Numbered from the stretch's first letter, positions 47,051 to 63,435 are shown. The stretch is DNA of 64,000 nt from Adlercreutzia sp. ZJ176 (GCF_011038975.1 NZ_JAAKEC010000009.1:1-64000); one strand, 5' to 3'. A program made the numbers and translations. Notes: generated by a model not told the origin, from the letters alone.

Positions 47051-47128
47051 AAAGAGGAGCCGCTTAAGATGTGGCAAAGGCGACCATGCCCTAGATGGCT
47101 CTCCCACGCAAGCGCCTTCCCCGATTGG

Positions 47129-47134
47129 TATAAT
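47129..47134 (+). promoter_or_regulatory. Conserved TATAAT in the ORF6N leader
   Basis: TTGGTATAATCCGCC is conserved in both ORF6N leaders (47129-47134 here; 60676-60681 on the minus strand for the other copy), 36 bp before each ATG. A clear -35 is not seen. Confidence 0.5.
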
Positions 47135-47170
47135 CCGCCTCACCAGACAAAGAGCGAAGAGGCGGAAGCT

Positions 47171-47737
47171 ATGGCAAGCGAAGAGAGGGGCCCGTCCACC
47201 GAGCCCGTGAAGGCGGAAGAAGGCGCGTTGGCCGCGATCGTCCCCGTGAGCGAGCCGGCCATACGCGACCTTATCTATACGGTACGCGGCACCCAGGTCA
47301 TGCTCGACAGCGACCTGGCGATGCTTTACGGGGTGGAAACCAGGATCATCAACCAAGCTGTTCGCCGTAACCAAGAACGCTTCCCCGAACACTTCTGCTT
47401 TCAGCTGAGCAAGGACGAGTGGGGAGTTTCGAAATCACAAACTGTGACTTCAAAACGGGCAGAGGGCAGCGGCGGACGCCGCAAGCTCCCGAATATGTTC
47501 ACCGAGCAGGGTGTGGCAATGCTCTCCGCCGTGCTCAGAAGCGAGACTGCCATTCGCGTGAGCGTCCAAATCATGGACGCCTTCGTCGAGATGCGCCACT
47601 TCATCGCCGGCAACGCCGCCATGTTCGAGCAAATCCGCGCCGTGGAGCTGTGCCAGCTGGAGTACCAGAGGACGACCGACGAGCGCATCGAGGACGAGGA
47701 GTCCGTGCGCGCCGTCCTCGCGCGCCTCGAGAGGTAG
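47171..47737 (+). CDS. ORF6N domain protein with internal deletion of its C-terminal domain
   Basis: 188 residues. The ORF6N DNA-binding domain (LIYTVRGTQVMLDSDLAMLYG, then INQAVRRNQERFPEHFCFQL, FTEQGVAMLSAVLRSETAI) is followed by a helical linker (VEMRHFIAGNAAMFEQI). Compared with the 320-residue copy at 59678-60640, about 125 residues between TTDER and IEDEESVRA are missing in frame, removing the whole PLD-like domain. It may still bind DNA. ORF6N proteins are typical of phages and mobile islands. Confidence 0.85.
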   Translation: MASEERGPSTEPVKAEEGALAAIVPVSEPAIRDLIYTVRGTQVMLDSDLAMLYGVETRIINQAVRRNQERFPEHFCFQLSKDEWGVSKSQTVTSKRAEGSGGRRKLPNMFTEQGVAMLSAVLRSETAIRVSVQIMDAFVEMRHFIAGNAAMFEQIRAVELCQLEYQRTTDERIEDEESVRAVLARLER

Positions 47738-48057
47738 GACCCTCGTCCGCAGGGCCTTTTCCGCATTCGGATGTCTCTCATCCCTGATGATCAAAGGGGT
47801 GCCTTTCGCATCCCCGCAACCTAGGATCAGTTTCAAAACTTCAAAAATCTTAAAGTTTCGAAACTGATCTGGCGAGAACTATCGCACCCGAAGCCATTGC
47901 AATAATAGACAGCACCCCGCGAGGGCAGCGGACAGAACGCCTTATCGCCTTCCCCCACCGCCGCACAAAAAGGGTGGAGCGCCTCAAATTACTCTATTAC
48001 CGTTAAGCATAGTTTTTGGAGCAATGCGGCTGCGGCGGCTGCGGCCGCAAAGAGCTC
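47738..48057. other. 320-bp intergenic region with hairpin
   Basis: Starts with the conserved ORF6N 3' flank (to about 47815), then the long hairpin at 47825-47869, then AT-rich DNA. No gene seen. Confidence 0.5.
47825..47869. promoter_or_regulatory. Long imperfect inverted repeat
   Basis: GATCAGTTTC-A-AAACTT pairs with AAAGTTT-C-GAAACTGATC around a short A/T loop, one mismatch in an arm of about 17 bp. It is either a terminator between convergent ORF6N and yccF genes or a protein-binding site. Confidence 0.55.
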
Positions 48058-48417
48058 CTACCTAATCTCGGCACCGAAGGGGAACAGGCTCAGCTTCGCC
48101 AGCTTGAACAGCTGCAAGCCGAACGGGATCCCCACGATGGTGATGCACCACAGCGCGCCGAGGACGGCGTACGAGATCGCCTCCCACAGGCCGATGACCA
48201 GCAGCCAGACGATGTTAGCCAGAAGCGACGGCGCTCCCCCGCCGTAGCTGATCTCCTTGCCGAACGGCGCCAGGGTGAGGCTCGCGAACTTGAAGCACTG
48301 CCGCCCCAGCGGAATGCCCACGATGGTCACGTAGAAGATGATTCCGGCGAGCACCCACCCCAGAGCCGTGAACAGCCCGCCGAAGATGATCCAGATGATG
48401 TTCCCGACTGTGCGCAT
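48058..48417 (-). CDS. YccF domain membrane protein
   Basis: 119 residues built of two internal repeats: FYVTIVGIPLGRQCFKFASLTLAPFGKEI and WCITIVGIPFGLQLFKLAKLSLFPFGAEI share the IVGIP-G-Q-FK-A-L-L-PFG-EI pattern (each shown part is under one domain). About four hydrophobic segments. YccF is a small inner-membrane protein of unknown function. It is high-GC like the chromosome, unlike the operon that follows divergently from 48683. The tail of a second YccF gene is at 45652-45695. Confidence 0.88.
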   Translation of the reverse strand: MRTVGNIIWIIFGGLFTALGWVLAGIIFYVTIVGIPLGRQCFKFASLTLAPFGKEISYGGGAPSLLANIVWLLVIGLWEAISYAVLGALWCITIVGIPFGLQLFKLAKLSLFPFGAEIR

Positions 48418-48682
48418 AGCCTTCCTTCCGTCGTCGCGTGATTCAACACCTCAACGCCATTATCTGGCAATTGCTCAACAGGAGATGCGTTTCACCACTT
48501 TAGACGAAACTATCAGGGTCAACCACTGCTTTCCAGATTAAGCTACCCAAACGATGCAATAGACGCAATACGATCATCCCCATGATATGACAGAGGCTCG
48601 GATGTCACAACGATGGTCTGGTAAACTATTCGTCACATACTAGGCAAAGCCTAATGGTTTCTCCAGCAACTAAGAGGTTTTT

Positions 48683-49795
48683 ATGAGCGGGCCAAAGTGC
48701 TATAAATGCAAGGTTGTCTCCGAAGCGGAGTTACTCCGAAGGGAGAGCGAAGCCCTTGAGCGGCGATGTGAAGCTTTAGTCGGCAAGTGCCAGAAAGCGC
48801 TAGCCGAACTCGATAACCCAGACTTTTTATCCATCCCAAAAGCAAAGTCAAATGACCGCGCGGAGCTCATCAAGTGGGAAGACGAACTCCGTTCGACAAT
48901 ATCGAAAATCCAGCTGCAATCTGATAGGGATTACGCAAAAAGAATTGTGGGCAAAATGAAAGGATGCGCCGCCCCACTCGACACCTCCGCAATAAGAATG
49001 CACACGCATGCGCCCCAGGCAAATCAACAGGACGATCAAACAAGAATAAGCTTTGAAGAGATCGATAAACTCCTATCAATTATAGCAACCGTGAGAAATA
49101 GGCGTAACGCTGCGAGCTTAGTCGAAAGGATAATCAGTCTAAGCAAAAGCGATGACATCGCACAAGCAAGAGGCGATTTGCTGACAGTGAAAACTGAACT
49201 GAGTCAACTGCTCTACATTCAAAACCTCAGAGAGCTTGCTGCTAATGAGCTTTTGCGCATTGAAGGTATAACAAACTCTGCCGCTGCAAGAGCACGCGAT
49301 GTCGCCATCGAAATCTCAACCCAGGCAGAGTACGAAGAGCTCAAACGTTTGATAAAGAAAGCCGAGATAGAACACGCCAAAAAGCAAGACGAAGATTACA
49401 TCTCGAAGGCTCTCCAGGATGCGCTCGCAGAATTGGGATACAGCCCCCTAGAAAGCTTCGACGTTACAGATTTCGGAAATGTAGTGCTCGCAGAACATCC
49501 GAATTACAGTGATTATGCACTTAGAACCCAAATAAACCCGAACAATGGGATGATGTTCACACGAATAGTTGCGTTTGAAGAACATGGCCTCGAAGAGGAT
49601 ACTGAGGTAGAGAAAGCTAGCTGCAGTCAGATTCACGCAATGCGAGAAAAGATGAGCGACCAAGGAATCGAGCTAACGCTGACAAGCGAAAGAGCAGCTG
49701 GCACTCGACCCGTAGAGTTAATCGAAAAAGAACGCAAAAAGAGAAGCGACGGCCGAAAGAAGCAGCAGGAGACAGGAATAATCCGTGAACGGTAA
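48683..49795 (+). CDS. Coiled-coil protein, first gene of the AAA+/kinase operon
   Basis: 370 residues, not recognised. It opens MSGPKCYKCKVV (a CxxC pair), then long charged heptad-like helices (RRESEALERRCEALVGKCQKA; EYEELKRLIKKAEIEH) and a mixed domain at about residues 245-330 (ALAELGYSPLESFDVTDFGN). The C-terminal 40 residues are Lys/Arg/Glu-rich. AAGAGG precedes ATG 48683. Its stop overlaps the ATPase start by 11 bp. It might be a scaffold or substrate adaptor for the ATPase (inference from position). Confidence 0.8.
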   Translation: MSGPKCYKCKVVSEAELLRRESEALERRCEALVGKCQKALAELDNPDFLSIPKAKSNDRAELIKWEDELRSTISKIQLQSDRDYAKRIVGKMKGCAAPLDTSAIRMHTHAPQANQQDDQTRISFEEIDKLLSIIATVRNRRNAASLVERIISLSKSDDIAQARGDLLTVKTELSQLLYIQNLRELAANELLRIEGITNSAAARARDVAIEISTQAEYEELKRLIKKAEIEHAKKQDEDYISKALQDALAELGYSPLESFDVTDFGNVVLAEHPNYSDYALRTQINPNNGMMFTRIVAFEEHGLEEDTEVEKASCSQIHAMREKMSDQGIELTLTSERAAGTRPVELIEKERKKRSDGRKKQQETGIIRER

Positions 49796-51770
49796 TTGCC
49801 ACAACCAAGAAGAGCCCATCCGCCAAAAGAGCGGCGTATCTATCCCAGAATCATGGCTTATGAGCTCAAACCGAGCTGCCCCCCTATGGCTAAGGACCCT
49901 TTACGCCTCTCTGCCAATCGCTGCAGTTTGCATCATTTACGGAGAAGTTCATGATCTTCATCCGTTGCATACCGGAGACGCGATTCGCCCCGATACGACA
50001 ATCAACGCTATCTGGCGAGCACTTACCGAATCGAAATTTGATGGCCTTCTAACTTTTGACCCACTCAGAGGATTAGCAATAGAAAAAAGCTCTGCCGGAA
50101 ACGATCGTGCAGCTATCATGAAGCATCTTGAAAGCCGCATGGACAAAAAAACTCTTTCAAGATTAATGCAAACGCCATTAGAGAGAGCGGCAAATAGCCG
50201 AGGGGAGCAAAGTCCCTCAACTGCTTCCTTCGAGGGGCTGGATGCGATTGCAGAAATTGTGGCACAAAGTAACGACCCCTCGCTCGCTCTCGTAATTGAC
50301 TACACGTCCCAAGCGGCACACACCAGTCAAGGGCCAGATCCAGCACTTGAGAAGTTAATGCTCTCAAGTCTGGAAATAGCAAATGCACATGCGCTGTACA
50401 ACGGGAAGCCCCTGCGTTTCCCGAGAGAAAACGGCGCGGGGCTGACTCGACGTCCTATCATTTGGCTAGTTGACAAACTCGATGACTTGCCAACATGGCT
50501 AACATACGGCGACGGCATTAGACAAATCCCTATACCGAAGCCAAGCGTTGACACTCGACAGCAAATTGCCGAACTGCTGATTACCGGGCAAGTTGACGAC
50601 AAAAACATTACCGAAGTTGCAAAACGTTTTGCAGACGCCACCGAAGGCTTTTCCACACGCGGCATGTTCGAGGCCATCCAACTTGCAAATAGCGCCGGCG
50701 CACTTACAGAAAGCATCGAAGCAGCCGTCCGATCTTATCGAGAGGGCCTTTCGGACAATCCTTGGCAAAGCCCTAGACTGAGAGAGCAACTCACTATTGG
50801 CGAAGAATTACTAACGAGACGCGTTCTGGGTCAACCTGAAGCCGTTTCAAAGGTGCTCGACATTCTGAAGAGATCAGCCCTTGGCTTGACAGGGGCCCAT
50901 CAGAGAAAGCCATCAACCGCACCGAAGGGCGTACTGTACTTTGCTGGACCAACGGGTGTTGGCAAAACCGAAATGGCCAAAGCGATCGCAGAGCTGGTTT
51001 TTGCAGATGACCAGGCTCTAATCCGTTTTGATATGTCGGAATTTCAAGATGACCACGCAAAGATTCGCCTCATCGGAGCACCACCCAGCTATGTTGGATA
51101 CGGATCCGGCGGAGAATTGACGAACGCAGTTCGACAACGGTCTCACTCGATTGTTTTGTTCGATGAAATGGACAAAGCAGGGCCAGAAGTTTACGATCTC
51201 TTTCTTCAAATTCTATCCGACGGCAGGCTCACTGATGGCTCAGGACAAACTGTCCACTTCGGGGAGACGATCATCATCTTCACGTCCAACCAAGGCGTTG
51301 CAGCGGCAGGCGACATACTTCGCGTTGACATGAACGATCCCTCTCAAGCTGCTTTGTACGAAAAAACCATTCGTAGCGCGGTCGAGAGTCACTTCCGCGA
51401 TACGCTTCGAAGGCCCGAGCTGCTTGGACGCATCGGGGATAACATCGTTGTGTTCAAGCCGATATACGGAGAGACGGCTGAAAACCTTGCCAATAATTTC
51501 ATAGACACGATTCTCTCAAACGTCAGGATTCGTGTTGGAAACGAAATAACCATACGAGACAACGCGCGACAAAAACTTATCCTCATGGCAACGAAGCCCG
51601 AGCATCTTGATATGGGCGGACGCGGAATTGCGCTTGCGCTTGAAGCATATCTTACAAACCCGCTAGGCAGATCTCTTTTTGACCTGGCACCAAATACCGC
51701 AGCAGAGATAGCTGATTTTGCTCTGAACGAGCAAGACCACATGGCAGTGGAGCTAAGGCTGTGCTCATAG
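49785..51770 (+). CDS. Clp/ClpB-like AAA+ ATPase with degenerate first AAA module
   Basis: 661 residues. The C-terminal half is a canonical Clp D2-type AAA+: Walker A FAGPTGVGKTEMAK (about 385), DMSEFQDDHAKIRLIGAPPSYVGYG pore region, Walker B SIVLFDEMDKA (about 455), and RRPELLGRI with the Arg finger (about 541). The N-terminal 320 residues look like a decayed AAA module: RPIIWLVDKLDDLP resembles a Walker B strand and ATEGFSTRGMFEAIQLA a lid, but there is no P-loop. It probably remodels or unfolds a protein partner. GTG 49785 overlaps the upstream gene; the downstream gene overlaps by 10 bp. Confidence 0.88.
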   Translation: MNGNCHNQEEPIRQKSGVSIPESWLMSSNRAAPLWLRTLYASLPIAAVCIIYGEVHDLHPLHTGDAIRPDTTINAIWRALTESKFDGLLTFDPLRGLAIEKSSAGNDRAAIMKHLESRMDKKTLSRLMQTPLERAANSRGEQSPSTASFEGLDAIAEIVAQSNDPSLALVIDYTSQAAHTSQGPDPALEKLMLSSLEIANAHALYNGKPLRFPRENGAGLTRRPIIWLVDKLDDLPTWLTYGDGIRQIPIPKPSVDTRQQIAELLITGQVDDKNITEVAKRFADATEGFSTRGMFEAIQLANSAGALTESIEAAVRSYREGLSDNPWQSPRLREQLTIGEELLTRRVLGQPEAVSKVLDILKRSALGLTGAHQRKPSTAPKGVLYFAGPTGVGKTEMAKAIAELVFADDQALIRFDMSEFQDDHAKIRLIGAPPSYVGYGSGGELTNAVRQRSHSIVLFDEMDKAGPEVYDLFLQILSDGRLTDGSGQTVHFGETIIIFTSNQGVAAAGDILRVDMNDPSQAALYEKTIRSAVESHFRDTLRRPELLGRIGDNIVVFKPIYGETAENLANNFIDTILSNVRIRVGNEITIRDNARQKLILMATKPEHLDMGGRGIALALEAYLTNPLGRSLFDLAPNTAAEIADFALNEQDHMAVELRLCS

Positions 51771-52396
51771 AGATAAACAGAATCTGCTCACCTGTCACCA
51801 CTCTCGGTCCTGGCAGACGGCTCGGTCTTTGGCTACAAGGATGCGACATTCGCTGCCCAAGTTGCGTCTCCAAAGACACCTGGGAAACAGGAGCCGGACA
51901 AATTGTTGAAACGATCGAACTTGCTGAGCTGATAATGAGCATGATCCAGCGTGATAATCTTTGCGGTATAACCATTACAGGCGGAGAGCCCACGCAGCAA
52001 AGCAGGGCGCTAGCCGACCTTGTACGAAGAGTTCGCCAGATGGGCAAGAAACAGATCGACTTAATAATGTTTACAGGCAGAACCGAGCAAGAAGCGAAGC
52101 TGATCTGCCCTCAGCTTATCTCTTTAATGGATGCCTGCGTTTTCGGACCATATATTGCCGAGCAAAGCTGCAGCGGGTCACTTATCGCAAGCGAAAACCA
52201 GCAACTCGTATTCATGAGAGCCTGCAGCGCTGCGTTCAAGGAGGCTCTTATCAATGCGAGCAATCAACTGCAGGTAAATGTAGCTGGAGCTACTATCACC
52301 TTTTCAGGAATACCGCGAAATGAGGACATGATCGCCATTGAAAAGATCTTGGAAAAGAAAGGCGTCCAGATCGGAGAAACCTCATGGTCAAATTAA
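51761..52396 (+). CDS. Radical SAM protein, NrdG/activase-like
   Basis: 211 residues. A canonical radical-SAM motif C-x3-C-x2-C (GCDIRCPSC, residues about 28-36) follows GPGRRLGLWLQ; the GGE motif is ITGGEPTQQ near 70. Overall length and layout match small glycyl-radical activases such as NrdG or PflA, binding one [4Fe-4S] cluster and SAM. No glycyl-radical enzyme is encoded nearby, so the target is unknown; the coiled-coil protein or the last operon gene are candidates. GTG 51761 overlaps the ATPase stop, and its own end overlaps the FHA gene by 13 bp. Confidence 0.87.
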   Translation: MLIEINRICSPVTTLGPGRRLGLWLQGCDIRCPSCVSKDTWETGAGQIVETIELAELIMSMIQRDNLCGITITGGEPTQQSRALADLVRRVRQMGKKQIDLIMFTGRTEQEAKLICPQLISLMDACVFGPYIAEQSCSGSLIASENQQLVFMRACSAAFKEALINASNQLQVNVAGATITFSGIPRNEDMIAIEKILEKKGVQIGETSWSN

Positions 52397-52944
52397 TGAA
52401 TTGTCCGCTGTGCGGAGGCCGACATCCCGAGGGAACAACGTTTTGCAATGTTGTATGGGCAGAGATTTCGCAAATCACACCCGCAACCACCAGATCAGCG
52501 CAAGATGATACCGAAGTCGAAAAGTCAATATCTGGTACTGCAATCTGCCCGTGCTGCGGAGCGATTGGAAATACAAACGAAGAATGCTGGCAATGCGGAA
52601 CCCCTGTTGGAGCATCCGGCAATAGTTTCGTGGCAATCCACTTCCCCTCTGCAAGAAGCATCCAAATCGCATATGGCGAAACTGTCACCATCGGACGAGA
52701 AAGCTCGAACAAAGACGTTGCTGCTGCCGCGAGGCACTACGACACTATCTCGCGAAAGCATTGCGTGATCACCGTAGACGAAAGCGGGAATTACATCTCT
52801 GTGATTGACTGCGGATCAACCAACGGCACTCGTATTCCCGAACTAGATCACCCCATTACCGCTGGAACAAAACACCAGCTCTCTCTTCCGACGAGAATAC
52901 AACTCGGAACTAGCATAGAGCTAACTATTGACAAGGAGCCCTAA
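52384..52944 (+). CDS. Zinc-ribbon and FHA domain protein
   Basis: 186 residues. Two Cys clusters, CPLCGGRHPEGTTFC (about 7-21) and CPCCG with CWQCG (about 55-75), precede an FHA domain with VTIGRESSNK, the SRKHCVI motif and DCGSTNGTRI, all key phosphothreonine-binding positions. It should dock to a protein phosphorylated by the kinase encoded three genes on. It is translationally coupled to the radical-SAM gene and separated from the PP2C gene by one base. Confidence 0.9.
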   Translation: MVKLMNCPLCGGRHPEGTTFCNVVWAEISQITPATTRSAQDDTEVEKSISGTAICPCCGAIGNTNEECWQCGTPVGASGNSFVAIHFPSARSIQIAYGETVTIGRESSNKDVAAAARHYDTISRKHCVITVDESGNYISVIDCGSTNGTRIPELDHPITAGTKHQLSLPTRIQLGTSIELTIDKEP

Positions 52945-52945
52945 T

Positions 52946-53719
52946 GTGACAAGCAACGCAAAACGCGTTATCGCGCAGATAAGCGCCGCAGGGTTTACTG
53001 ACGTCGGGCCAAGCCGCTCGCATAACCAAGATGCCATTGTTCTGGGAACGACTATCGGACTCGGAGACCATGCGATCTTGCAATGGTCCGGGCTTTGCGA
53101 AGAGTCTGTTACTTTTGCCGTCGTTGACGGCATGGGCGGCTATGATGGCGGCGCAGAAGCTGCTGCTTTGGTTGCTGCGGCAATGGCCAGATACAAAATG
53201 CCTACAGACCTAAGTGCCACTGTCGAGCAATTTCGCAATATATCGAATAGAGTATCTGAAGCAGGAAAAGCATGGGGAGCTCCAAAAATGGGGGCTGCTT
53301 TTGCTGCACTGTGTCTCGCAAAAGAGTCTCTTCTTTTCTTGAATGTTGGCGATTGCCGCGCTTACAAGATCAACGGAAACTACCTGGGACAAATGAGCGT
53401 GGATGATCGTATATCAACTGAAACTTCAGCCATCACGCAAGCAATTGGGGGCACAAATAATATCGACCCGCATGCGTGGTCTCAGAATCCAGGTAGCGAA
53501 AACGAGCGTTATCTTCTGTGCTCCGACGGGATCTGGGGTACATTGAGCCAGGAGACGCTACTGAGGATATGCCGCGAGAACGTCACGGCCATAGATGCCG
53601 TAAATCGGATCTGGAACGAAATGCAAAATCATGAAATCACAGATAACTTCTCAGCATTGATCATTGATGCTATCACCCAAGAAGAAGAGCCGCGTCAAGG
53701 AGAGGGTCGTGTCCGATAA
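52946..53719 (+). CDS. PP2C-type protein phosphatase
   Basis: 257 residues. Metal-binding and core motifs of bacterial PPM/PP2C phosphatases are present: GPSRSHNQDAI, AVVDGMGGYDGG, NVGDCRAY, CSDGIWGTL and DNFSALIID. It should remove phosphates placed by the adjoining Ser/Thr kinase. GTG 52946 has GGAG 9 nt upstream; its stop overlaps the kinase start by 11 bp. Confidence 0.93.
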   Translation: MTSNAKRVIAQISAAGFTDVGPSRSHNQDAIVLGTTIGLGDHAILQWSGLCEESVTFAVVDGMGGYDGGAEAAALVAAAMARYKMPTDLSATVEQFRNISNRVSEAGKAWGAPKMGAAFAALCLAKESLLFLNVGDCRAYKINGNYLGQMSVDDRISTETSAITQAIGGTNNIDPHAWSQNPGSENERYLLCSDGIWGTLSQETLLRICRENVTAIDAVNRIWNEMQNHEITDNFSALIIDAITQEEEPRQGEGRVR

Positions 53720-55211
53720 AACAAGGATCGAGAACGCTACAGCGGGAAAAACTCGAAGAGAAACAGAGCTGACAAGAAGGGAAACTGGCAAGACATCCGC
53801 TTCGAAGACCCGCAGGCTTCTTCTTCCCAAAGAAGTGTCGAGCCGTTACGAGTATCTCTATGATCTGCCAGCATCTGGAGGCGAGGCAGATGTTGCCCTA
53901 CTCAAAGATAAAGAGACGAAGCAGCTTCTTTTCTTTAAGTTTTACCGTGCGGGTATTTCTCCCGACCCTATGGCAATGCTGCTTCTTCGCTCGGCAGATC
54001 CAAAGCACGTTGTTCGCCTCATAGACTTCCATGACGAAGATGACGGAACATGGGAGATTCAAGAATACTGTCAGCTGGGTTCCATCCAAGATTGGGCAAG
54101 CAGTCAAGAAGGAAGATTAGCCAAGGAGACGCTTGTCGATGTGCTGAAGGAAATGGCTTCGGCGCTAGAATATCTGCACGGACTTGGATCTGGCATTGCC
54201 CATCGGGATTTGAAACCAGCTAATGTTCTGGTGAGGTCCGACGACCCTCTTGACCTTGTTCTTGCTGATTTTGGCCTAGCAAAATCACAGCAAACGTTTT
54301 CCCATCTAACCACCATGGCAAAAGGCACCTGGCACTATTCAGCTCCTGAGGTTCATTTTAAAGTTTCGACACCAAAATCCGACTGGTTTTCGCTCGGAGC
54401 GATGCTTTACGAACTTTATACAGGGACGAAACTTTTCTCAATGGCTGACGGAACAGAGGTTTCTGAAGACGATGCGCGCGCACGATGTCTGGCGGGTAAT
54501 TACTCAACTACCAGCATCGACGACCCTAGGTGGAAGTTGCTTATTGACGGTCTTCTCGTATGGGAGAAGGACAACAGGTGGGGTGCAAGAGAGGTAGGCG
54601 AATGGCTGAGCGGCGGATCGCCCGCAGTTCAAGAGGGAAAAAGAGCATATACGCGGCGGCAAACGACGGCTCACTATAGTCCCATCTGGAGCCCAGATGT
54701 AGCCAGCAGCCCAATCGAACTTGCAACGTTGCTCAGAAACAACTGGAAGAGCGCTGCGAATTGCCTTGCAGGAAGACCCGATCAAAAGCTGATCGATTTT
54801 CTCGAAGAGTTTCCGGGTTGTCAGAAAGCCGTGCGAATCATCGAAGCAGGCGACAACCCTGAAGTGAAGATGGTTAAACTGCAGGCAATTCTAGACCCAT
54901 CTGGGCCGATTCTTTTCAGAGGATATGACCTCAATAGAAATGGTCTCAATGATATCGTCTCGCTCGCCCACAGCGGAGACAACGAAGCGATGGCGCACCT
55001 CATTGACATCAAGAATCATCGTATCTTGAAAGCCTATTCTGAAGTCACTGGATCAAAATCTGCGGCAAGGGCAGATTACCTCCTTGACGAGTGGGAGAAG
55101 CAGGGAAGGGCACTCATCGCAAAACTCCCCCAAAGGCAGGCCGAAATAGGGAGAGTCGCCTTGAGGGAAGCACTTCCTGATATGTTCGTAGCGGCTTTCG
55201 AGGAGGAGTAG
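53709..55211 (+). CDS. Ser/Thr protein kinase
   Basis: 500 residues from GTG 53709, which has GGAGAGG upstream and keeps the about 10-bp overlap seen at other junctions; ATG 53667 is an alternative. The kinase domain has LLFFKFYRAG with the ATP-binding Lys (about 73), HRDLKPANVL (about 163), ADFGLA (about 187), GTWHYSAPEVH and SDWFSLGAMLYELYTG. The Gly loop ASGGEADVAL is atypical. The C-terminal 200 residues are helical and unassigned. No PASTA or transmembrane segment, so it is cytoplasmic and probably phosphorylates operon partners recognised by the FHA protein. Confidence 0.92.
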   Translation: MSDKTRIENATAGKTRRETELTRRETGKTSASKTRRLLLPKEVSSRYEYLYDLPASGGEADVALLKDKETKQLLFFKFYRAGISPDPMAMLLLRSADPKHVVRLIDFHDEDDGTWEIQEYCQLGSIQDWASSQEGRLAKETLVDVLKEMASALEYLHGLGSGIAHRDLKPANVLVRSDDPLDLVLADFGLAKSQQTFSHLTTMAKGTWHYSAPEVHFKVSTPKSDWFSLGAMLYELYTGTKLFSMADGTEVSEDDARARCLAGNYSTTSIDDPRWKLLIDGLLVWEKDNRWGAREVGEWLSGGSPAVQEGKRAYTRRQTTAHYSPIWSPDVASSPIELATLLRNNWKSAANCLAGRPDQKLIDFLEEFPGCQKAVRIIEAGDNPEVKMVKLQAILDPSGPILFRGYDLNRNGLNDIVSLAHSGDNEAMAHLIDIKNHRILKAYSEVTGSKSAARADYLLDEWEKQGRALIAKLPQRQAEIGRVALREALPDMFVAAFEEE

Positions 55212-55221
55212 GAGTGGCGGC

Positions 55222-55976
55222 ATGACTGTAGACTATATTAAAGAGGGAAGATCGAAGCCCTATGGACAGCCAACTGCGAAACGAAACGTGGAAAACGGGG
55301 CTGAGTACGAGCTTTACCTTCACATTGTGGGACTGTTTAATGATGCAGTACGTGAACATCGGAATGACCCGGTTAATATGTTCGGATTTGAAGACATCTC
55401 AGAGCAAATGATCGTTTTTTCGGAAGTGATATCTGCATTGCCCCAGAAGAGAAGATTGAAGGAAGCGTCGACCTGGTTATCGTTCGTCCGAAATACGTCA
55501 TCTACGTGGATCACTTCAGAGTTGATGGCTATGAGCATATAGAAGACAGAAGGGGAAACGACGCTGGAAGCGTTTACGAAAGAGCCCTCGGTGAGCTAAG
55601 GGCAGGTAAAATAACTAAGGATGAGTTCTCTGCCGAGGTGGAAAGTTTTACCTACACGAGCAAGCAATTAGAAGACAACATTAAAGATGAAATAGAAAAG
55701 AAAGGACAGAAAGAAGAGCGATACGTCGATGCCTTTGCCGAATACGCTAAAAGCATCGACGAGGGAAGGCCGTATGCGTACGACAAGACAAAGAAACAAG
55801 AATTCTGGCTGCTGATTGAGGTCATCACGCCAGACCAAATTGAAGTGCACTTTGATGCGATCAGGGACTCGTTGGCGCAATCGAAATTCGAAGGAGCAAT
55901 CTTTGTCGACAACAATGATCCGTCCCAAATGCCTGTTGATGTGAGCCAGATTGTGTTTGTAAGACGATCATCTTGA
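55222..55976 (+). pseudogene. Last operon gene, frameshifted in a T6 run
   Basis: The frame from ATG 55222 (GGAGTGG upstream) codes GAEYELYLHIVGLFNDAV up to about 55415, then turns to nonsense; the other frame, from about 55413 to 55976, continues sensibly (GSDICIAPEEKIEGSVDLVIV, RPKYVIYVDHFRVDGYEH). One extra T in the six-T run 55415-55420 would join them into about 251 residues. It may be a sequencing error, a true mutation or a slippery switch. The product is not recognised; the C-terminal part is charged and helical. Confidence 0.75.
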
Positions 55977-55980
55977 CAGT

Positions 55981-57120
55981 CTAATCCATCAACGACGCTA
56001 TCTCTTGCAGCTCGGATTCCAGCTTAGCAACTACAGAGTCGAGTTCTCCTATACGCTTTTCTAAGGCGTCTTTCGACAACTCAACAGAGAACTGTCTATT
56101 TCGGCTAGACCGGTTTGCTCGCAAATCATCGATGCCAAGTTCGGTATAGGCGAAACGCGTAGGAAGCGATTCTCGAATTATTGCAGCTCGTTGCTCCGTC
56201 TTCATCTGCTCGTATTTTTTTGCCAAGCCTATAATCAAACACGCAATCCATGCAAACGAGAGACCGATGGAGAGAAGGATTGCCAGGTTCAAAAATGCTC
56301 CTACTGCAGAATCCCATTCTGTCCAGAGAATGCTACCGCTGAAAAGGCCGTACAGCGAGACGGGACCAACCACAAGAAACGCAATCACGGAGTTAAGCGC
56401 AATCTGTAGATACAGGTTCTTCTTTGGACTCTTTAGAGAGTCTAGCTCCTCTAAGCTAGAGAGATAGCCGCGAAGCCCCCTTCTCTCCTCCTTATGCTTT
56501 GCTAATGACAACTCAATGCTATTTCGCCGGGCTTCGGCTTCGTGTCGCTTTTCTTCAAGAAGAATCGCATCCCTCAGCTCCAAAGAATCTCTGTAATCAC
56601 CCGCGCCATCAAGCAAGCGTAGCGCCTCAGAATAGTTTCCCAAGTCAAAAGCGGCATGAGCTTTCCGAAGAAGGAGATCTTGTCTCTTCAATCTGTCTAG
56701 CAAGCTGACAGCACCACGATAGTTGCCTAAGGCCTCTAGCTCACTAACAGCCCAGCCGTAACGCTTTTCGTCAATTAGGGCACGCGCTCTCGCCATTGTC
56801 TGCTGACGCTCGCTTTCAAGCTTGCCAGCCAGCGTCGCCTTTTCCTCCGAATCGCGAAAACCTCCCAATTGCGCGAAGCAATAGCTTGCTCTACCATAGT
56901 CATCTTGCTCCAGGTAGCCAAGCGCAGTGGCGTATTCTTCAGCGAGCGCCTTTTGCCTTACATCATACGCATCCTGCATAACAGCGTTCGCAACAATGAG
57001 CGCACCCAAATCACTGGAAGAGAGGTCTCTCACCTTCTCTTGGAGGGACTTAGTCCAAGACTCATTCCCAAGGTCCGCCTTAGCAAACTCTCTGGCCTTT
57101 TCCAGGGAGAAAGACCTCAT
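55981..57120 (-). CDS. TPR-like repeat protein with two transmembrane helices and coiled coil
   Basis: 379 residues. The N-terminal half has three to four short helical repeats ending GxY/GxxRD (YCFAQLGGFRDSEE; AVSELEALGNYRGAV; ALRLLDGAGDYRDSLEL). Two hydrophobic helices follow (IALNSVIAFLVVGPVSLYGL at about 245 and FLNLAILLSIGLSFAWIACL at about 280), then a terminal coiled coil (LEKRIGELDSVVAKLESEL). Convergent with the kinase operon, 4 bp from its last stop. It is a possible membrane sensor or effector arm of that system (inference). Confidence 0.8.
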   Translation of the reverse strand: MRSFSLEKAREFAKADLGNESWTKSLQEKVRDLSSSDLGALIVANAVMQDAYDVRQKALAEEYATALGYLEQDDYGRASYCFAQLGGFRDSEEKATLAGKLESERQQTMARARALIDEKRYGWAVSELEALGNYRGAVSLLDRLKRQDLLLRKAHAAFDLGNYSEALRLLDGAGDYRDSLELRDAILLEEKRHEAEARRNSIELSLAKHKEERRGLRGYLSSLEELDSLKSPKKNLYLQIALNSVIAFLVVGPVSLYGLFSGSILWTEWDSAVGAFLNLAILLSIGLSFAWIACLIIGLAKKYEQMKTEQRAAIIRESLPTRFAYTELGIDDLRANRSSRNRQFSVELSKDALEKRIGELDSVVAKLESELQEIASLMD

Positions 57121-57391
57121 GCAACACCTCCGGACAATACAAATACATTGGATAGCGACAATTATATTCTGCGACCGCCCAATACCGCATCGTTTGTCCC
57201 AGAAGGTTTAGCTTAATCGTTTCGCTACACCATCGGAACCTTTTAAGCTAGGGCAATGGCAGATCCTCCGACGACTTCATGAGGATCAACGCAACATTTC
57301 GCATCATGCGCCTTCCTGCAATGCCGTCTTTTCCGTCTATGCAATCCATACTCAGATGACAAGAATGTAGGCTCAATTCGCCTCCTCCTGG

Positions 57392-57739
57392 CTAGGCGAC
57401 ACGCGACACGTAGAGCAAAACGTCTACTGCGCGAACGAGCGCCTTTACGATTACCATGTGCGCATTACTTGCTTCGCAGCGCTTCTGGACGAAAGAAGCT
57501 TCGCTTCGAATCGCCTTTCTTTCCTCGATAAGCTTATCGAACTGAACCTCTGTCAGATTTTCTGACTGCATGAGGGTCTCCGTCCCCTTCGCCTGCGTGT
57601 CCAGAATATTGAATACGCGCATTCGGGCGGCATTACTCGAATCTATGGCAGATTCGAAGTCCCTTTGTGAAAGCGCCAATATGCCTGAATTGTTGGACTT
57701 GTGCAGCATGTCAATCGAACGATCGCTTTGATGATTCAC
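57392..57739 (-). CDS. Small protein divergent from the HTH gene
   Basis: About 115 residues from GTG 57739 (GAGGTGA upstream); ATG 57799, inside the palindrome, is an alternative. Helical, with ALSQRDFESAIDSSNAARMR, TLMQSENLTEVQFDKLIEER and a hydrophobic end (MVIVKALVRAVDVLLYVS). It resembles no family I can name; a helical antitoxin- or anti-repressor-like role is possible. It shares a palindromic control region with the divergent HTH gene. Confidence 0.6.
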   Translation of the reverse strand: MNHQSDRSIDMLHKSNNSGILALSQRDFESAIDSSNAARMRVFNILDTQAKGTETLMQSENLTEVQFDKLIEERKAIRSEASFVQKRCEASNAHMVIVKALVRAVDVLLYVSRVA

Positions 57740-57785
57740 GTAACTCACCTCATGGCTTTCCTCTAAAGATGTCACTCTTCTCGCT

Positions 57786-57816
57786 CTAAGTGGTGTCATC
57801 TTATGACACCACTTAG
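57786..57816. promoter_or_regulatory. Perfect 14-bp palindrome, operator candidate
   Basis: CTAAGTGGTGTCAT (57786-57799), 3 nt, ATGACACCACTTAG (57803-57816). It lies between the divergent small gene and the HTH gene (start 57902), the classical position of a repressor-operator switch. Confidence 0.7.
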
Positions 57817-57901
57817 AATTCGGTGATATTATACAAAACGAAGGGCGTGACAGATACGGCCAAATCTGTCGTATTTGACACCGGTAAACAAGGAGCAGCA
57901 G

Positions 57902-58600
57902 ATGAGCGAGAAAAGCAAGTTCTTCGGGAAAAGAGAAATCGACAGGAATTGGTTTATAGACGTTGTGAAGCGCTGTGGTACAAGCGTCAACAAACTTGGG
58001 GATGAAGGTATTAAAGGTAGAAGCAGAAGCACACTCAAGCGATGTCTCCGAGCAGGATGCATGGACGATGACCTGCTCGATGGTATAGCCAAAGAGCTTA
58101 ACGTCCATCCTGATTTCTTGGCGGGAGGTGATTTTGCTAAGACGCTCACGTTTCCCATCATGGAAGAAGAAGGTGTAAGGGAGCACTGGAAGACAACCTA
58201 TCTCAACCCAGCGCATTTCCCTTATTCCTATGCAGAGCAGGAAGCTCTAGGAACTTACCAGTATCTTATGAATATCCTTCTCATGCACGACGTTTCCAAA
58301 AGCGAATTCAATCGCCTCAGTCGAAAAGAACGCATGAACCTTGCAGGCGAGCTCGACCGAGCGATAACACGTGTCTTGAGAAAGTACTTCCAATCCAGCC
58401 ACCTATCTTCCGGAATTGACTACAGAAGCATCGGGGCCTGGAAAAACGAAGATGACGTAATCGAAACCATGCTCGATTACCTTACACAACGCGGTTTGAT
58501 TACCGATAGCTTTCCTCCTTCAGACGATGAGCCGGACATGATTGGCAGTGCAGTGCGCGTAGACTCGAAAAGCACGAGCATATCAACAGGTAAGCAATGA
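57902..58600 (+). CDS. HTH-domain regulator of the island
   Basis: 232 residues. NWFIDVVKRCGTSVNKLGDEG followed by RSTLKRCLRAGCMDDDLLDGIAKELNV is an XRE-like helix-turn-helix with the second helix unusually basic. The remaining 150 residues are helical (LSRKERMNLAGELDRAITRV). ATG 57902 has AAGGAG upstream. Divergent from the small gene across the palindrome, so probably a repressor of that promoter and possibly of the island. Confidence 0.72.
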   Translation: MSEKSKFFGKREIDRNWFIDVVKRCGTSVNKLGDEGIKGRSRSTLKRCLRAGCMDDDLLDGIAKELNVHPDFLAGGDFAKTLTFPIMEEEGVREHWKTTYLNPAHFPYSYAEQEALGTYQYLMNILLMHDVSKSEFNRLSRKERMNLAGELDRAITRVLRKYFQSSHLSSGIDYRSIGAWKNEDDVIETMLDYLTQRGLITDSFPPSDDEPDMIGSAVRVDSKSTSISTGKQ

Positions 58601-58660
58601 GAGCAACGGAGTGTGTCCCACTGCCCCACTTTCCATATATATTAACATGCGGTACTATAT

Positions 58661-59368
58661 ATGCAAATGGAAGGCAGATGCGACATATCGTCCGGCTACA
58701 CCGCCTCGCAGGCGGCGCGGCTCCTCGGCGTCGGGAGACACGAGGTCGCGAGGCTCGTGCGCGCCGGCGCCCTCCGCGCCCGGAAGACGGACTCCGGCAA
58801 CCTCGTCGTCGACCCCGGCAGCGTGCACGCCCACGGAGCGCTCTCCCCGTTCAGGGGGAGGCCGTGGAGCCCGCAGACCGCCTGGGCCGCGCTGCTGGCG
58901 CTCGGCGGCGACGACGCCTCGTGGCTCGAGTACCACAAGAGGAGGCGCCTCTTTTTGAAGCTCAGGGAGATCGGCGCGGAGGAGCTCGTCTGGCTCGCCC
59001 GCAACAGGATGGAGGCGAGGAGGTACCTCGTCTCGCCGTCGTTCGAAGACGACGTGAGGGAGGCGCTCGTCGCCTCGGGGATGGCCTCCCCCTTCGCCTC
59101 CCGCCTGGGGCTCGCGTCGACGGCGCCCGTCCTCGACGGATACGCGCTCGGAAGGACGCCGGAGGAGGTCGAGCGGGGCCTCTTCCTCGTGGAGGACGCC
59201 TCGGGGCCGTGCACGGTGAGGTTCGCGAAGGGCCTGCCGGGTTCCCTGGCGGACGCCGCCGAGATGCCCGAGCCCGTCGTCGCCGCGGACCTCGCGATGT
59301 CGGCGGACGCGCGCGAGCGGAGGTGCGGGCTCGACTACCTGGAAGGGCTTCTGGATGGAATGCGCTGA
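58661..59368 (+). CDS. Excisionase-type HTH protein, AbiEi-like antitoxin candidate
   Basis: 235 residues, GC-rich again. N-terminal excisionase/MerR-like HTH: TASQAARLLGVGRHEVARLV with DSGNLVVDPGSV. The rest is like antitoxin partners of AbiEii nucleotidyltransferases (PVVAADLAMSADARERRCG near the end), a weak resemblance. The nucleotidyltransferase-like fragment that follows at once supports a former toxin-antitoxin pair. Not certain. Confidence 0.65.
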   Translation: MQMEGRCDISSGYTASQAARLLGVGRHEVARLVRAGALRARKTDSGNLVVDPGSVHAHGALSPFRGRPWSPQTAWAALLALGGDDASWLEYHKRRRLFLKLREIGAEELVWLARNRMEARRYLVSPSFEDDVREALVASGMASPFASRLGLASTAPVLDGYALGRTPEEVERGLFLVEDASGPCTVRFAKGLPGSLADAAEMPEPVVAADLAMSADARERRCGLDYLEGLLDGMR

Positions 59369-59593
59369 GCTGAGGTCTCGAAGCTGACGAGGCCGTGGGA
59401 CGTCGTCATAGAGCTCGGGCTGCGCGGCGCCGCCTTCCACCGCATGACCCGCGGCGCGCTCGTCGTCGACATCCTGGTGGCGGATCACCTGCCTTCCGAC
59501 AAGGCGAAATCTGCCAAGGTCAACAGGTGGCCGATGCCGGAGATCGCGGGCGGCGCGCAGGCGATCGAGCGCGGCATTGTCGGACTTTCCTAG
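59369..59593 (+). pseudogene. Fragment of a nucleotidyltransferase (AbiEii-like) gene
   Basis: Reads SKLTRPWDVVIELGLRGAAF, then TRGALVVDILVADHLPSDKA and IAGGAQAIERGIVGLS before TAG. This resembles the interior of a nucleotidyltransferase-type toxin but lacks a start codon, the GSxxxD-type active site and the C-terminus. It abuts the conserved 3' flank of the right ORF6N unit, which probably truncated it. Confidence 0.55.
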
Positions 59594-59597
59594 ATCG

Positions 59598-60712
59598 CGG
59601 AGACGTGAAGGGCACCCCTTTGATCATTAGGGATGAGCGACGTCCGAATGCGGAAAAGGCCCCCGCGGACGAGGACCCTACCTCTCGAGGCGCGCGAGGA
59701 TGGCGCGCACGGACTCCTCGTCCTCGATGCGTGTGATGGCGAAGCTCTTCTTCCCGGCGTCTTTGAGGGAGGCGCCGACGAGGTAGCACTCAACGCCGTC
59801 TAGGATGAGGAATCGGTCGTGGAAGGCGGTTGTGTGCTCGACCGCGAGCCGCGGGTACTGCGCGTTGAAGGTCGCGACATCGCGCTGGGTGAGGTTTGTG
59901 CGCGGGTGGGTCCACACGGTGACGTTCACGCCGTCTTGCTTCTTGGCCAGGATGTTGAGCGTGCCCGCGTCCACGTAGCCGTCGACCAGCACGATGCTGC
60001 GCTCGGCGCGTCGCACGAGCGACACCAAAAGCTCGAAGGCGTCCCAGACCTGGCCGTCGAAGAACACCTTCTGTCGTGGTGCCTCGTGCGTGCCCATGTA
60101 GTCGAACACCCGCTCGAAGCGCTCGTCGGTCGTCCTCTGGTACTCGAGCAGCTTCAGCTCCACGCCTCGCACCTGCTCGAACATGGCGGCGTTGCCGGCG
60201 ATGAAGTGGCGCATCTCGACGAAGGACTTCATGATCTGAACGCTCACGTCGATGGCGACCTGGCTGCGGAGCACTGCCGACAGCATCGCAACGCCTTGCT
60301 CGGTGAACGCCTGCGGCGGGTAACGCCACCACGAATCCTGTTTTCCCAGATCAGGGCGTAAGGTCGCAATTTGCGACCTTAGGTCATTCTCTTCCGCCTT
60401 GGTTACCCTGAAGCAGAATTCTTCCGGAAACCGCGTCCTGTTCCTGCGCACTGCCTCATTGATGCGCTTGGTTTCAACCTGATAGAGCGTCGCGAGATCG
60501 CTGTCCAGCATGACCTGAGTACCGCGTATCGTATATATGAGGTCGCGTATGGCCGACCCGCTCACGGGGACGATCGCGGCCGACGTGTCTTCTTCCGCCT
60601 CCACGGGCTCGGCGGACGGGCCCTTCTCTTCGCTTGCCATAGCTTCCGCCCTTCGCTCTTTGTCTGGTGAGGCGGATTATACCAAGCGGGAAGGCGCTTG
60701 TGCGGGAGAGCC
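59598..60712. repeat. Right ORF6N repeat unit (inverted relative to the left unit)
   Basis: Reverse complement counterpart of 47096-47815, with the full-length gene. Conserved leader (through the TATAAT) and conserved 3' flank (GATGAGCGACGTCCGAATGC region) show that the unit is larger than the gene. Confidence 0.8.
59678..60640 (-). CDS. ORF6N domain protein with PLD-like C-terminal domain, full length
   Basis: 320 residues. ORF6N domain: LIYTIRGTQVMLDSDLATLYQ, INEAVRRNRTRFPEEFCF, FTEQGVAMLSAVLRSQVAI. The C-terminal domain has SIVLVDGYVDAGTLNIL and an HKD-like FHDRFLILDG with YLVGASLKDAGKKSF, a variant phospholipase-D-like fold that may bind or cut nucleic acid. ATG 60640 matches its truncated twin at 47171. 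Probably of phage or mobile-element origin. Confidence 0.88.
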   Translation of the reverse strand: MASEEKGPSAEPVEAEEDTSAAIVPVSGSAIRDLIYTIRGTQVMLDSDLATLYQVETKRINEAVRRNRTRFPEEFCFRVTKAEENDLRSQIATLRPDLGKQDSWWRYPPQAFTEQGVAMLSAVLRSQVAIDVSVQIMKSFVEMRHFIAGNAAMFEQVRGVELKLLEYQRTTDERFERVFDYMGTHEAPRQKVFFDGQVWDAFELLVSLVRRAERSIVLVDGYVDAGTLNILAKKQDGVNVTVWTHPRTNLTQRDVATFNAQYPRLAVEHTTAFHDRFLILDGVECYLVGASLKDAGKKSFAITRIEDEESVRAILARLER

Positions 60713-60896
60713 TTCCCCGCCAGCCTCCATTCAGCCGCTATCGCCTGGTGGGCCTTGGCCCGCACGGCGCCGAGAAGCCCGCGCATCAGGGCGAGACAAG
60801 CGAGAGCGGGCAAGTCATGAGGCCGTCTGCACCGACATTGCGCGCAAGCGCTCAAGCGCAAAAGTCCTCGCGTTCAGCAGGCCGGATCAGGCGGCG

Positions 60897-61352
60897 TTAC
60901 TCGGCAGGGCGCTCTTCGATCATGGGGTTTCGGCTGTACTTGCTCAGCTCGGCTATGTCGCGCGTGCCGTACTTGACGAACAGGGTTCCCTCGGCTTTGC
61001 CGTTCGAGTACGCAAGATGCACCCAGCCGACCTCGTTGCCGTCCGAGTCGATCAAGACATAGAGGTTCGGGTCCGGGGTCTTCTCGACATGACCGGAAGC
61101 GCGGGCTCCGGCTTCGTCCCGAGCCTGCCATGACAGCCGTTCCTGATCCCCCTGGTCTTCTACGAAGCTCAAAGACCGCCCGCTGTTTTGCCCAGGCTCC
61201 AGATACGTGCCTTCAAGCTCGAAGCCTTCGAGGACTCCTTGGCGCATGTCCTCCAGTTCAGCAGCGACCCCAATCGAAAGCACGGCAAGCACAACCACTG
61301 CCAGAAGACCCAGTCCTGCTGCTATGCAGCAGCTCAACTTTTTGAGGCTCAT
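60897..61352 (-). CDS. Small membrane-anchored protein of unknown function
   Basis: 151 residues from ATG 61352 (AAGGAG upstream). One N-terminal hydrophobic segment (LSCCIAAGLGLLAVVVLAVL) acts as signal anchor; the rest is polar and probably extracellular, with LYVLIDSDGNEVGWVHLAYS resembling a beta-sheet repeat. Transcribed toward the ORF6N gene. No family recognised. Confidence 0.7.
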   Translation of the reverse strand: MSLKKLSCCIAAGLGLLAVVVLAVLSIGVAAELEDMRQGVLEGFELEGTYLEPGQNSGRSLSFVEDQGDQERLSWQARDEAGARASGHVEKTPDPNLYVLIDSDGNEVGWVHLAYSNGKAEGTLFVKYGTRDIAELSKYSRNPMIEERPAE

Positions 61353-62167
61353 AGCGGACGCTCCTTCGGGATGAGGTGGATCAGCTTCCTCTCGTGCCCA
61401 GGAATAACGGAACGTGCGGATTCCAGCCCCTTTCACTGTCAGCAATTAGAAGGGAGCTTTGATTTGTGGGGCATTATACATCCTTTGATACGCTAGAGAG
61501 ACTCGTAGTTGCTTCCATACCAATTGAACAGTTGTTTTCGAAAATGCCCTCTTGGCTGTTACTGGGAGGGCATCTCTTATGGCTAATCTGCTCTTATCAG
61601 ATCCATGAAATCGAAGCTCGAAACAGTTCATCACGATAATGTGAGCTCACACTTGGATTTAGAGCAAATCAGCAAAACAGTACTCGCGCATCTTCCGACA
61701 ATATGATCATTTCGCTCAATATGCACTCATCCTGCACTCAGCAAAACAGCCCCTAGAGACCGCCTTCTGTTGAGGTGCAAATTCGGTGATGATTGGTGTA
61801 TCGCATAGCGCGAATCATGCGGATATAGTAAAACGCAAAGCACTTAGCCCCGGGACGACCGCTGATTCAAGTCGCCGGGGCTCAATGAGTCATTTGAGTT
61901 CTGAGGAGCATCTTCTATTTCAATGCTTGCGGCCGCCTTAGCAAACCTCTTCAGCAACTGCAGGATCATCTTTGTACTGTTCTGCTTGAGGTTATCTCTT
62001 ATCCAGACCGTTTGGGAAGAACAGCCCGGGTTCCAATTGCGTGATGACATCGTGAAGCGTCTGTCCGCGAAAGTCGATCAGGTTCTTTACTATTCTCCGT
62101 GATTGGAGCAGTTAATGGGTGGGCTAGCCGAAACGAGGTTTCAGGTACCTCGCGAGCGGCTTGCGCT
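61353..62167. other. 815-bp region without supported genes
   Basis: AT-richer DNA with interrupted frames. It has a terminator-like hairpin at 61541-61576 and another (AGCCCCGG/CCGGGGCT) at 61846-61882. Minus-strand frames at 61850-62095 look like decayed coding sequence (ITQLEPGLF), possibly a transposase remnant, but this is not firm. Confidence 0.45.
61541..61576 (-). terminator. Hairpin terminator, minus strand
   Basis: ATGCCCTC (61544-61551) pairs with GAGGGCAT (61566-61573); on the minus strand the stem is followed by TTTTCGAAAA. It would stop transcription coming from the 62 kb side. Confidence 0.5.
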
Positions 62168-63292: not shown

Positions 63293-63341
63293 TGCCATCA
63301 CCTTCCTCGTGCGCTTTTCGCAACTGCTCCGTGCCCTTTAC

Positions 63342-63435
63342 GCGCTTTAGCCATTTTTACAGCTTTTAGCGGGTTTTACAAGTTTTAGCGTCCTTTAGAA
63401 CTTTTAGCTTCCTTTAGTTTCTTTAGCATCCTTTG
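63342..63435. repeat. Phased TTTTAGC/CTTTAG short repeats
   Basis: About eight copies of (C)TTTTAGC or TTTTAC occur every 9-13 bp, near one helical turn, right upstream of the AAA ATPase gene. This could be an iteron-like binding array or a bent-DNA promoter. Confidence 0.6.

What the first reader, a model, noticed from the sequence alone, without database searches (positions are those of the whole stretch)
48683..55976. Tightly coupled operon of coiled-coil protein, Clp-like AAA+, radical SAM activase, zinc-FHA, PP2C and Ser/Thr kinase: candidate undescribed system
Seen: seven co-directional genes, most overlapping by 10-13 bp, visibly more AT-rich than flanks, inside an island bracketed by ORF6N repeats. 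Known: FHA/PP2C/STK triads are phospho-switches in conflict and stress systems (TerY-P-like triads usually add a vWA protein, absent here), and AAA+ Clp proteins remodel targets. Inference: a phosphorylation-gated AAA+ machine whose target is chemically modified by a radical SAM enzyme. I do not know this exact combination as a named system.
Basis: partly seen in the sequence, partly recalled or inferred. Interest (0 to 1): 0.88.

Follow-up and report, generated by a model that had tools for sequence, protein, structure and literature searches.

The report
Kinase-controlled Clp and radical-SAM island system
A gut actinobacterium carries an inserted operon that joins a protein-unfolding ATPase, a radical-SAM enzyme and a kinase/phosphatase switch; the same parts travel together in unrelated bacteria and on plasmids, sometimes beside DNA- or RNA-cutting enzymes, so it is probably an undescribed defence-type machine, though nobody has tested its function.

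Summary
The operon is real. Six intact genes (48683-55211) encode an SGPK coiled-coil protein (g1), a single-active-ring Clp-like AAA+ (g2), an NrdG/PFL-activase-like radical SAM (g3), zinc-ribbon FHA (g4), PP2C (g5) and a Ser/Thr kinase (g6). A seventh gene (g7) is frameshifted. A same-genus genome has the empty site, so the operon lies in a 13.7-kb, AT-richer insertion (48472-62165); the left ORF6N copy lies outside it. The parts recur together. Every one of 30 loci with this AAA+ (Coriobacteriia, other Actinomycetota, Bacillota, Pseudomonadota plasmids) has the radical SAM; 27 have a g1-type protein; most have kinase and FHA. None of 8 control ClpB/ClpC loci has any. Close relatives share 54-60% AAA+ identity but are rare. 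Two module types plug into the g1/AAA+/rSAM core: kinase/PP2C/FHA, or helicase plus PIN nuclease. Two plasmid versions add DUF4011-helicase-MTES_1575 nuclease, one fused to the kinase. g1 carries MSGPK and one invariant Cys (23/23). Best reading: a phospho-gated AAA+ remodeller with a radical-SAM partner acting on g1, in conflict with mobile elements. Co-inheritance is shown; chemistry and defence role are inferred. No named system matched in PADLOC, Pfam, NCBIfam or the papers searched.

The parts
48472..62165 (.). Inserted island (about 13.7 kb) that holds the operon; absent from the same-genus genome G028
   Evidence: G028:C41 aligns to window 48050-48471 and then to 62166-63434 with 9 bp between
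48683..49795 (+). g1: SGPK coiled-coil protein, 370 aa; N-terminal MSGPK; predicted C-terminal alpha-beta4-alpha domain with invariant Gly252 and Cys314
   Evidence: Gly252 and Cys314 in 23/23; model, mean pLDDT 68
49785..51770 (+). g2: Clp-like AAA+, 661 aa; N-terminal half without Walker A (degenerate AAA-like), C-terminal ClpB/ClpC D2-type ring with pore loop and one Walker A; no ClpP-docking IGF/LGF motif
51761..52396 (+). g3: radical SAM protein of the NrdG / PFL-activase type (CxxxCxxC, GGEP, SxNQ), 211 aa
   Evidence: Fer4_12 3.6e-24; below the NrdG cut-off
52384..52944 (+). g4: zinc-ribbon + FHA phosphothreonine-binding protein, 186 aa
   Evidence: FHA 3.1e-10; zinc ribbons by cysteine pattern and sub-threshold DZR
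52946..53719 (+). g5: PP2C-type Ser/Thr phosphatase (GTG start, RBS aaggag)
   Evidence: (Stp1-like 2.5e-24)
53709..55211 (+). g6: Ser/Thr protein kinase (GTG start); HRDLKPAN, DFG and APE motifs intact
   Evidence: Pkinase 3.2e-35
55222..55976 (+). g7: one gene in two frames, frameshifted near 55390-55420; function unknown
   Evidence: homologue only in G101 (E 2.3e-11)
55981..57120 (-). g8: convergent membrane protein with TPR-like repeats and two hydrophobic segments; possible extra component
   Evidence: weak matches to a membrane protein beside the G063 kinase and to the G101 kinase C-terminus (E 2e-4 and 7e-4 in a 10-sequence set)

Best explanation
The operon is a mobile system built on a three-protein core: g1 (SGPK coiled-coil protein with one invariant cysteine), a Clp-like AAA+ unfoldase with one ATP-binding ring, and an NrdG/PFL-activase-like radical SAM enzyme. 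In this version a Ser/Thr kinase, a PP2C phosphatase and a zinc-ribbon FHA protein form a phospho-switch that decides when the core is engaged. Proposed cycle: a trigger tips the kinase/phosphatase balance; FHA binds a phosphorylated partner and brings it to the AAA+ ring; the ring remodels a client (g1, or an effector held by g1) rather than feeding ClpP; the radical SAM partner makes or keeps a radical-based change on g1 (the invariant Cys or the SGPK segment), setting the armed state. The output is most likely directed against mobile DNA: versions elsewhere carry helicase plus PIN or restriction-type nuclease. Shown: gene set, intact motifs, co-inheritance, lateral transfer, module swapping. 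Inferred: every step of the cycle, the substrate of the radical SAM, and the defence role.
For: Co-inheritance: all 29 loci found by the AAA+ (30 with the window) have the radical SAM; 26/29 have a g1-type protein, 21/29 a kinase, 19/29 FHA, 10/29 PP2C; 8 ClpB/ClpC loci have none. In the 16 loci not used to build the profiles the radical SAM is found in 16 and g1 in 13. Specificity: in 397 genomes of the order, 17 have the AAA+ at E<1e-130 while ClpB/ClpC score about 1e-94. Transfer: empty site, GC drop, AAA+ 60% identical to a Bifidobacteriaceae MAG but 30-34% to the second subtype in its own family, plasmid copies. Conflict link: on an Aristaeella plasmid DUF4011-helicase-MTES_1575 directly precedes the block, and in Rhizobium it is fused to the kinase; helicase+PIN versions. 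Single Walker A in 30/30 AAA+; GG[ED]P in 29/29 and CxxxCxxC in 27/29 radical SAMs; Cys314 in 23/23 g1.
Against: No nuclease or helicase lies in the window's block, so the defence link comes from relatives with partly different gene sets. No phosphorylation site, no interaction and no radical SAM substrate was tested. The AAA+ structure prediction failed (pLDDT 38), so the degenerate first AAA half rests on sequence pattern. No viral contig or phage record carries it. PADLOC hits are only generic kinase and AAA domains. g1 of the PIN-type systems is linked to the SGPK type only weakly.
Confidence: 0.42

Rival explanations
1. A stress-response complex of the TerY-P type: kinase, phosphatase and FHA tune an AAA+ chaperone that protects proteins under metal, oxidative or envelope stress, with the radical SAM as a redox sensor; no role against mobile DNA.
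For: G063 has a vWA-like gene, a second membrane kinase-like protein, coiled-coil proteins and an OmpA-like lipoprotein next to the block; subtype-2 kinases carry C-terminal membrane segments and the window has membrane protein g8, which fits an envelope sensor.
Against: Nuclease-helicase partners and a kinase fused to a DUF4011-helicase-REase; patchy presence in about 4% of the order; plasmid carriage.
Confidence: 0.27
2. A post-translational maturation machine: the NrdG-like enzyme makes a glycyl or thiyl radical (or a thioether) on g1, a small radical-bearing enzyme or cofactor carrier, the AAA+ loads or unfolds g1, and the phospho-switch is only regulation. The function is metabolic.
For: Radical SAM closest to NrdG and PFL-activase; invariant Cys in g1; radical SAM homologues sit with AAA + DUF1257 + DUF2997 on Paenibacillus and Rhodococcus plasmids, and cyanobacteria pair DUF2997, ycf35/DUF1257 and a ferredoxin (PMC4284462).
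Against: g1 has no glycyl-radical-enzyme domain or RVxGY motif; nuclease modules are hard to explain.
Confidence: 0.2
3. A contractile-injection or type VI secretion regulator: kinase (PpkA), phosphatase (PppA), FHA (Fha) and a ClpV-like ATPase controlling firing.
For: Same domain types; FHA scores weakly to TagH; a related radical SAM + AAA pair lies in a Treponema cluster with VgrG/Pvc8 and baseplate genes.
Against: Within the loci examined no Tss, Hcp or sheath genes were seen; the ClpV model scores 212 bits against a cut-off of 885; radical SAM and g1 have no place in that pathway.
Confidence: 0.05
4. A decaying or chance gene cluster without present function in this strain.
For: g7 is frameshifted.
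Against: Six other genes are intact with catalytic motifs kept, tight overlaps are preserved, and the set is conserved elsewhere.
Confidence: 0.06

Closest known systems
TerY-P triads (vWA, PP2C, kinase) and other phospho-regulated AAA+ conflict systems such as vWA-MoxR ternary systems (PMC7159879)
   Same: kinase, PP2C and FHA working beside an AAA+ protein; a radical SAM occurs in one vWA/FtsH subset
   Different: here a Clp D2-type ring with a degenerate first half, an NrdG-like radical SAM and an SGPK protein; vWA-like gene only in G063
Type VI secretion threonine-phosphorylation pathway (PpkA, PppA, Fha, ClpV; from general knowledge)
   Same: kinase, phosphatase, FHA and a Clp-family ATPase
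   Different: no secretion genes seen, no ClpV N-domain, radical SAM and g1 present
Mokosh (MkoA) and DUF4011/MTES_1575 candidates (PADLOC PDC-S37)
   Same: relatives' helicase or kinase-helicase-REase proteins match these models
   Different: those models lack the AAA+/radical SAM/g1 core; the window has no helicase
Dodola (DolB) and PADLOC candidate PDC-M37B
   Same: share the Clp-type AAA+ ATPase region
   Different: match limited to the ATPase region; partners differ
AAA - DUF1257/Ycf35 - DUF2997 - radical SAM or ferredoxin clusters
   Same: AAA+ next to the same radical SAM family; DUF2997 has a GxxC motif like that of PIN-type g1 proteins
   Different: other AAA family; DUF1257 and DUF2997 are separate small proteins; homology to SGPK g1 not established

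Membership tests
Type VI secretion phosphorylation pathway | ClpV (TssH) equivalent | tested here: not met
   TIGR03345 212 bits against cut-off 885, D2 region only
Type VI secretion phosphorylation pathway | structural tss genes in the locus | tested here: inconclusive
   none among the domains scanned in and beside the block; the rest of the genome was not searched for tss genes
TerY-P-like triad | kinase + PP2C phosphatase, adjacent | tested here: met
   g5 and g6 overlap by 11 bp
TerY-P-like triad | vWA (TerY) protein | tested here: not met
   no vWA hit among the window proteins scanned; a DTSGSMG protein occurs beside the G063 locus
Glycyl-radical-enzyme activase (NrdG/PflA) | CxxxCxxC cluster motif and radical SAM fold | tested here: met
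Glycyl-radical-enzyme activase (NrdG/PflA) | scores above the NrdG or PFLA cut-off | tested here: not met
   69.5 bits against 126.1; 57.7 against 231.75
Glycyl-radical-enzyme activase (NrdG/PflA) | a glycyl radical enzyme as partner in the locus | tested here: not met
   no such domain among the operon's proteins
ClpA/ClpC-type ClpP partner | IGF/LGF docking loop in the last ring | tested here: not met
   absent in the window and in 27 of 30 AAA+ by motif search; an IGF string in L028, L077, L078 is of unknown meaning
Mokosh | RNA-helicase/kinase MkoA | tested here: not met
   window kinase matches only the MkoA kinase part; no helicase in the block
Anti-phage defence system in general | protects cells against phage or plasmid | not testable with these tools
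   needs experiments

The most novel reading that the evidence does not exclude
A new class of bacterial conflict machine in which radical SAM chemistry on a dedicated SGPK/Cys protein arms a Clp-like AAA+ ring, with interchangeable input (kinase/phosphatase/FHA) and output (PIN nuclease, helicase-REase, membrane) modules, spread across several phyla.
Probability: 0.33. Interest if true: 0.9.

Novelty: new variant of a known kind. Interest (0 to 1): 0.7.

Why it matters
It would add protein-unfolding ATPases coupled to radical chemistry to the repertoire of mobile bacterial conflict systems and give a defined core (g1, AAA+, radical SAM) to search for and test. The invariant cysteine and MSGPK segment of g1 make the radical SAM substrate question directly testable. 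It also links kinase/phosphatase/FHA switches, common but poorly understood in bacteria, to a concrete machine.

Tried and rejected
AAA+ structure prediction from two sequences was useless (pLDDT 38). The g1 model gave no Foldseek match at E<=0.001; the second look listed KA1-like domains at Z 8-9, which may be only a common alpha-beta4-alpha arrangement. Viral scans found only generic phage Clp proteins, without the N-terminal half or partners; no phage record matched. The E. coli search found only other Clp proteins. g1 gave no scan pattern in the full alignment. g7: no family and no further relatives. Considered a glycyl radical motif in g7 (FRVDGY) and rejected it: not kept in the G101 homologue, and the gene is broken. 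DUF2997 homology of g1: one sub-threshold hit, which falls exactly in the Acinetobacter coiled-coil gene, and a profile comparison P of 0.005; left as a lead. Ten paper searches found no description of the set (one of these concerned the genetic code).

Full report
1. What is there. Window 48683-55211 holds six intact co-directional genes followed by a frameshifted seventh. Domain searches give AAA_2 (2.2e-46), Fer4_12/radical SAM (3.6e-24), FHA (3.1e-10), PP2C (9.9e-7; Stp1 model 2.5e-24) and Pkinase (3.2e-35); g1 and g7 match nothing.

2. It is an insertion. Two flank searches in the three genomes held for the genus show that G028 contig 41 carries the left flank up to window 48471 and the right flank from 62166 with 9 bp between. 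The operon therefore sits in a 13.7-kb insertion. No integrase was recognised among the island proteins examined. The ORF6N copies (47069-47737 and 59678-60640) are imperfect inverted repeats, of which only the right one is inside; similar copies exist elsewhere in the genome.

3. Relatives. Only two other members of the 138-genome family have a close AAA+ (G101 58%, G063 54%), and one Bifidobacteriaceae MAG (60%) turned up among 84,980 species. A second subtype (30-34% identical) has the same six parts in another order: SGPK, ZnR-FHA, radical SAM, AAA+, PP2C (in some), kinase with membrane segments. G101 has one copy of each subtype. A profile of the AAA+ separates system members from ClpB/ClpC by more than 35 orders of magnitude and finds 17 of 397 genomes of the order and 4 further genomes in a sample of the phylum. 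On plasmids the family reaches Bacillota (Aristaeella: DUF4011-helicase-REase, kinase, SGPK, FHA, radical SAM, AAA+, PP2C, DUF6273, kinase), Alphaproteobacteria (Rhizobium: AAA+, radical SAM, kinase-DUF4011-helicase-MTES_1575 fusion, SGPK) and a second architecture in Beta-, Gamma- and Alphaproteobacteria and in G098: SF1 helicase, PIN, coiled-coil protein, AAA+, radical SAM.

4. Co-inheritance. Profiles for each part were run on 29 loci chosen by their AAA+ and on 8 ClpB/ClpC loci of the same order. The radical SAM was found in 29/29, g1 (either type) in 26/29, kinase in 21/29, FHA in 19/29, PP2C in 10/29; controls 0/8 for all. Some loci were also profile seeds; among the 16 that were not, the radical SAM was found in 16 and g1 in 13. 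Some loci are cut by contig ends, and closely related genomes are not independent, so these are counts and not probabilities.

5. Anatomy. All 30 AAA+ proteins have a single Walker A, in the C-terminal ring; pore loop, Walker B and GGRG are kept in nearly all, and the ClpP-docking tripeptide is absent in 27. The N-terminal ~330 residues have an AAA-like pattern without a P-loop, which the failed model could not confirm. The radical SAM keeps CxxxCxxC (27/29 by pattern), GG[ED]P (29/29) and an SxNQ motif and is nearest to NrdG and PFL-activase, but below their cut-offs. g1 starts with MSGPK in the close group, in the second subtype and in the Aristaeella and Rhizobium copies, is otherwise 12-32% identical, and keeps Gly252 and Cys314 in all 23 aligned sequences. 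Cys314 falls in the last helix of a predicted alpha-beta4-alpha domain. Other loci (L078, L079, L080, L083, L084) keep the Cys but lack a recognisable SGPK.

6. How it may work. The kinase/PP2C/FHA module is separable from the core, so it is best seen as an input switch. The core pairs an unfoldase-type ring, probably without ClpP, with a radical SAM enzyme and a protein that carries one invariant cysteine. I infer that g1 is the substrate or carrier for the radical chemistry and a client or adaptor of the ring. The output differs between versions (nuclease, helicase-nuclease, membrane protein). Confidence in this scheme is 0.42; that the gene set is a functional co-inherited system is far better supported than its mechanism.

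7. Known or new. PADLOC has only generic kinase and ATPase matches for the window; relatives match MkoA and PDC-S37 through helicase and REase domains. Papers searched do not describe the set; the library lacks many subscription papers, and PADLOC dates from 2023, so an existing name cannot be excluded. Membership tests fail for type VI secretion, TerY-P (no vWA in the window) and glycyl-radical activases proper. I therefore rate it a new variant of a known kind (phospho-regulated AAA+ conflict systems), with an open chance that the core is a new class.

Noticed in passing
G063 (L023, L197-L216): This 1.1-Mb family relative (GC 39%) appears to read TGA as Trp: long-ORF coverage of 337 kb rises from 0.41 to 0.73 under code 4, with TGA 432 versus TGG 500 codons, and no RF2 above cut-off was found although relatives have it (genome 75% complete). 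ARAGORN still reports a tRNA-SeC(tca) at L200:4024-4119, so selenocysteine and UGA=Trp may coexist. The two code surveys checked do not mention this group.
   Followed up: partly
L023:11060-16809: Beside the G063 block: a vWA-like protein (DTSGSMG), a membrane kinase-like protein, two coiled-coil proteins and an OmpA-like lipoprotein, possibly extra components.
   Followed up: no
L193:8938-11093: On a Treponema plasmid a related radical SAM and an AAA ATPase sit inside a cluster with VgrG/Pvc8 and baseplate genes.
   Followed up: no
L190:8956-14948: Calothrix plasmid: radical SAM, a coiled-coil protein starting MSGEK, a two-ring CbxX-like AAA ATPase and a zinc-ribbon coiled-coil protein, next to Hsp70 and TPR genes: the core with another AAA family.
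   Followed up: partly
L191:4252-7989 and L192:6676-9543: AAA - DUF1257-like - DUF2997 - radical SAM clusters on Rhodococcus and Paenibacillus plasmids; the DUF2997 GxxC motif resembles the conserved Cys of the PIN-type coiled-coil proteins.
   Followed up: partly
window 47069-47737 and 59678-60640: Imperfect inverted ORF6N copies about 12 kb apart, with tandem copies on contig C44 of the same genome; they may serve as recombination sites.
   Followed up: no
window 57875-58600: HTH-like protein of 241 aa, divergent from g8 within the island, no family match; possible regulator.
   Followed up: no
window 37368-37464: tRNA-SeC gene, so the window's genome probably makes selenoproteins.
   Followed up: no
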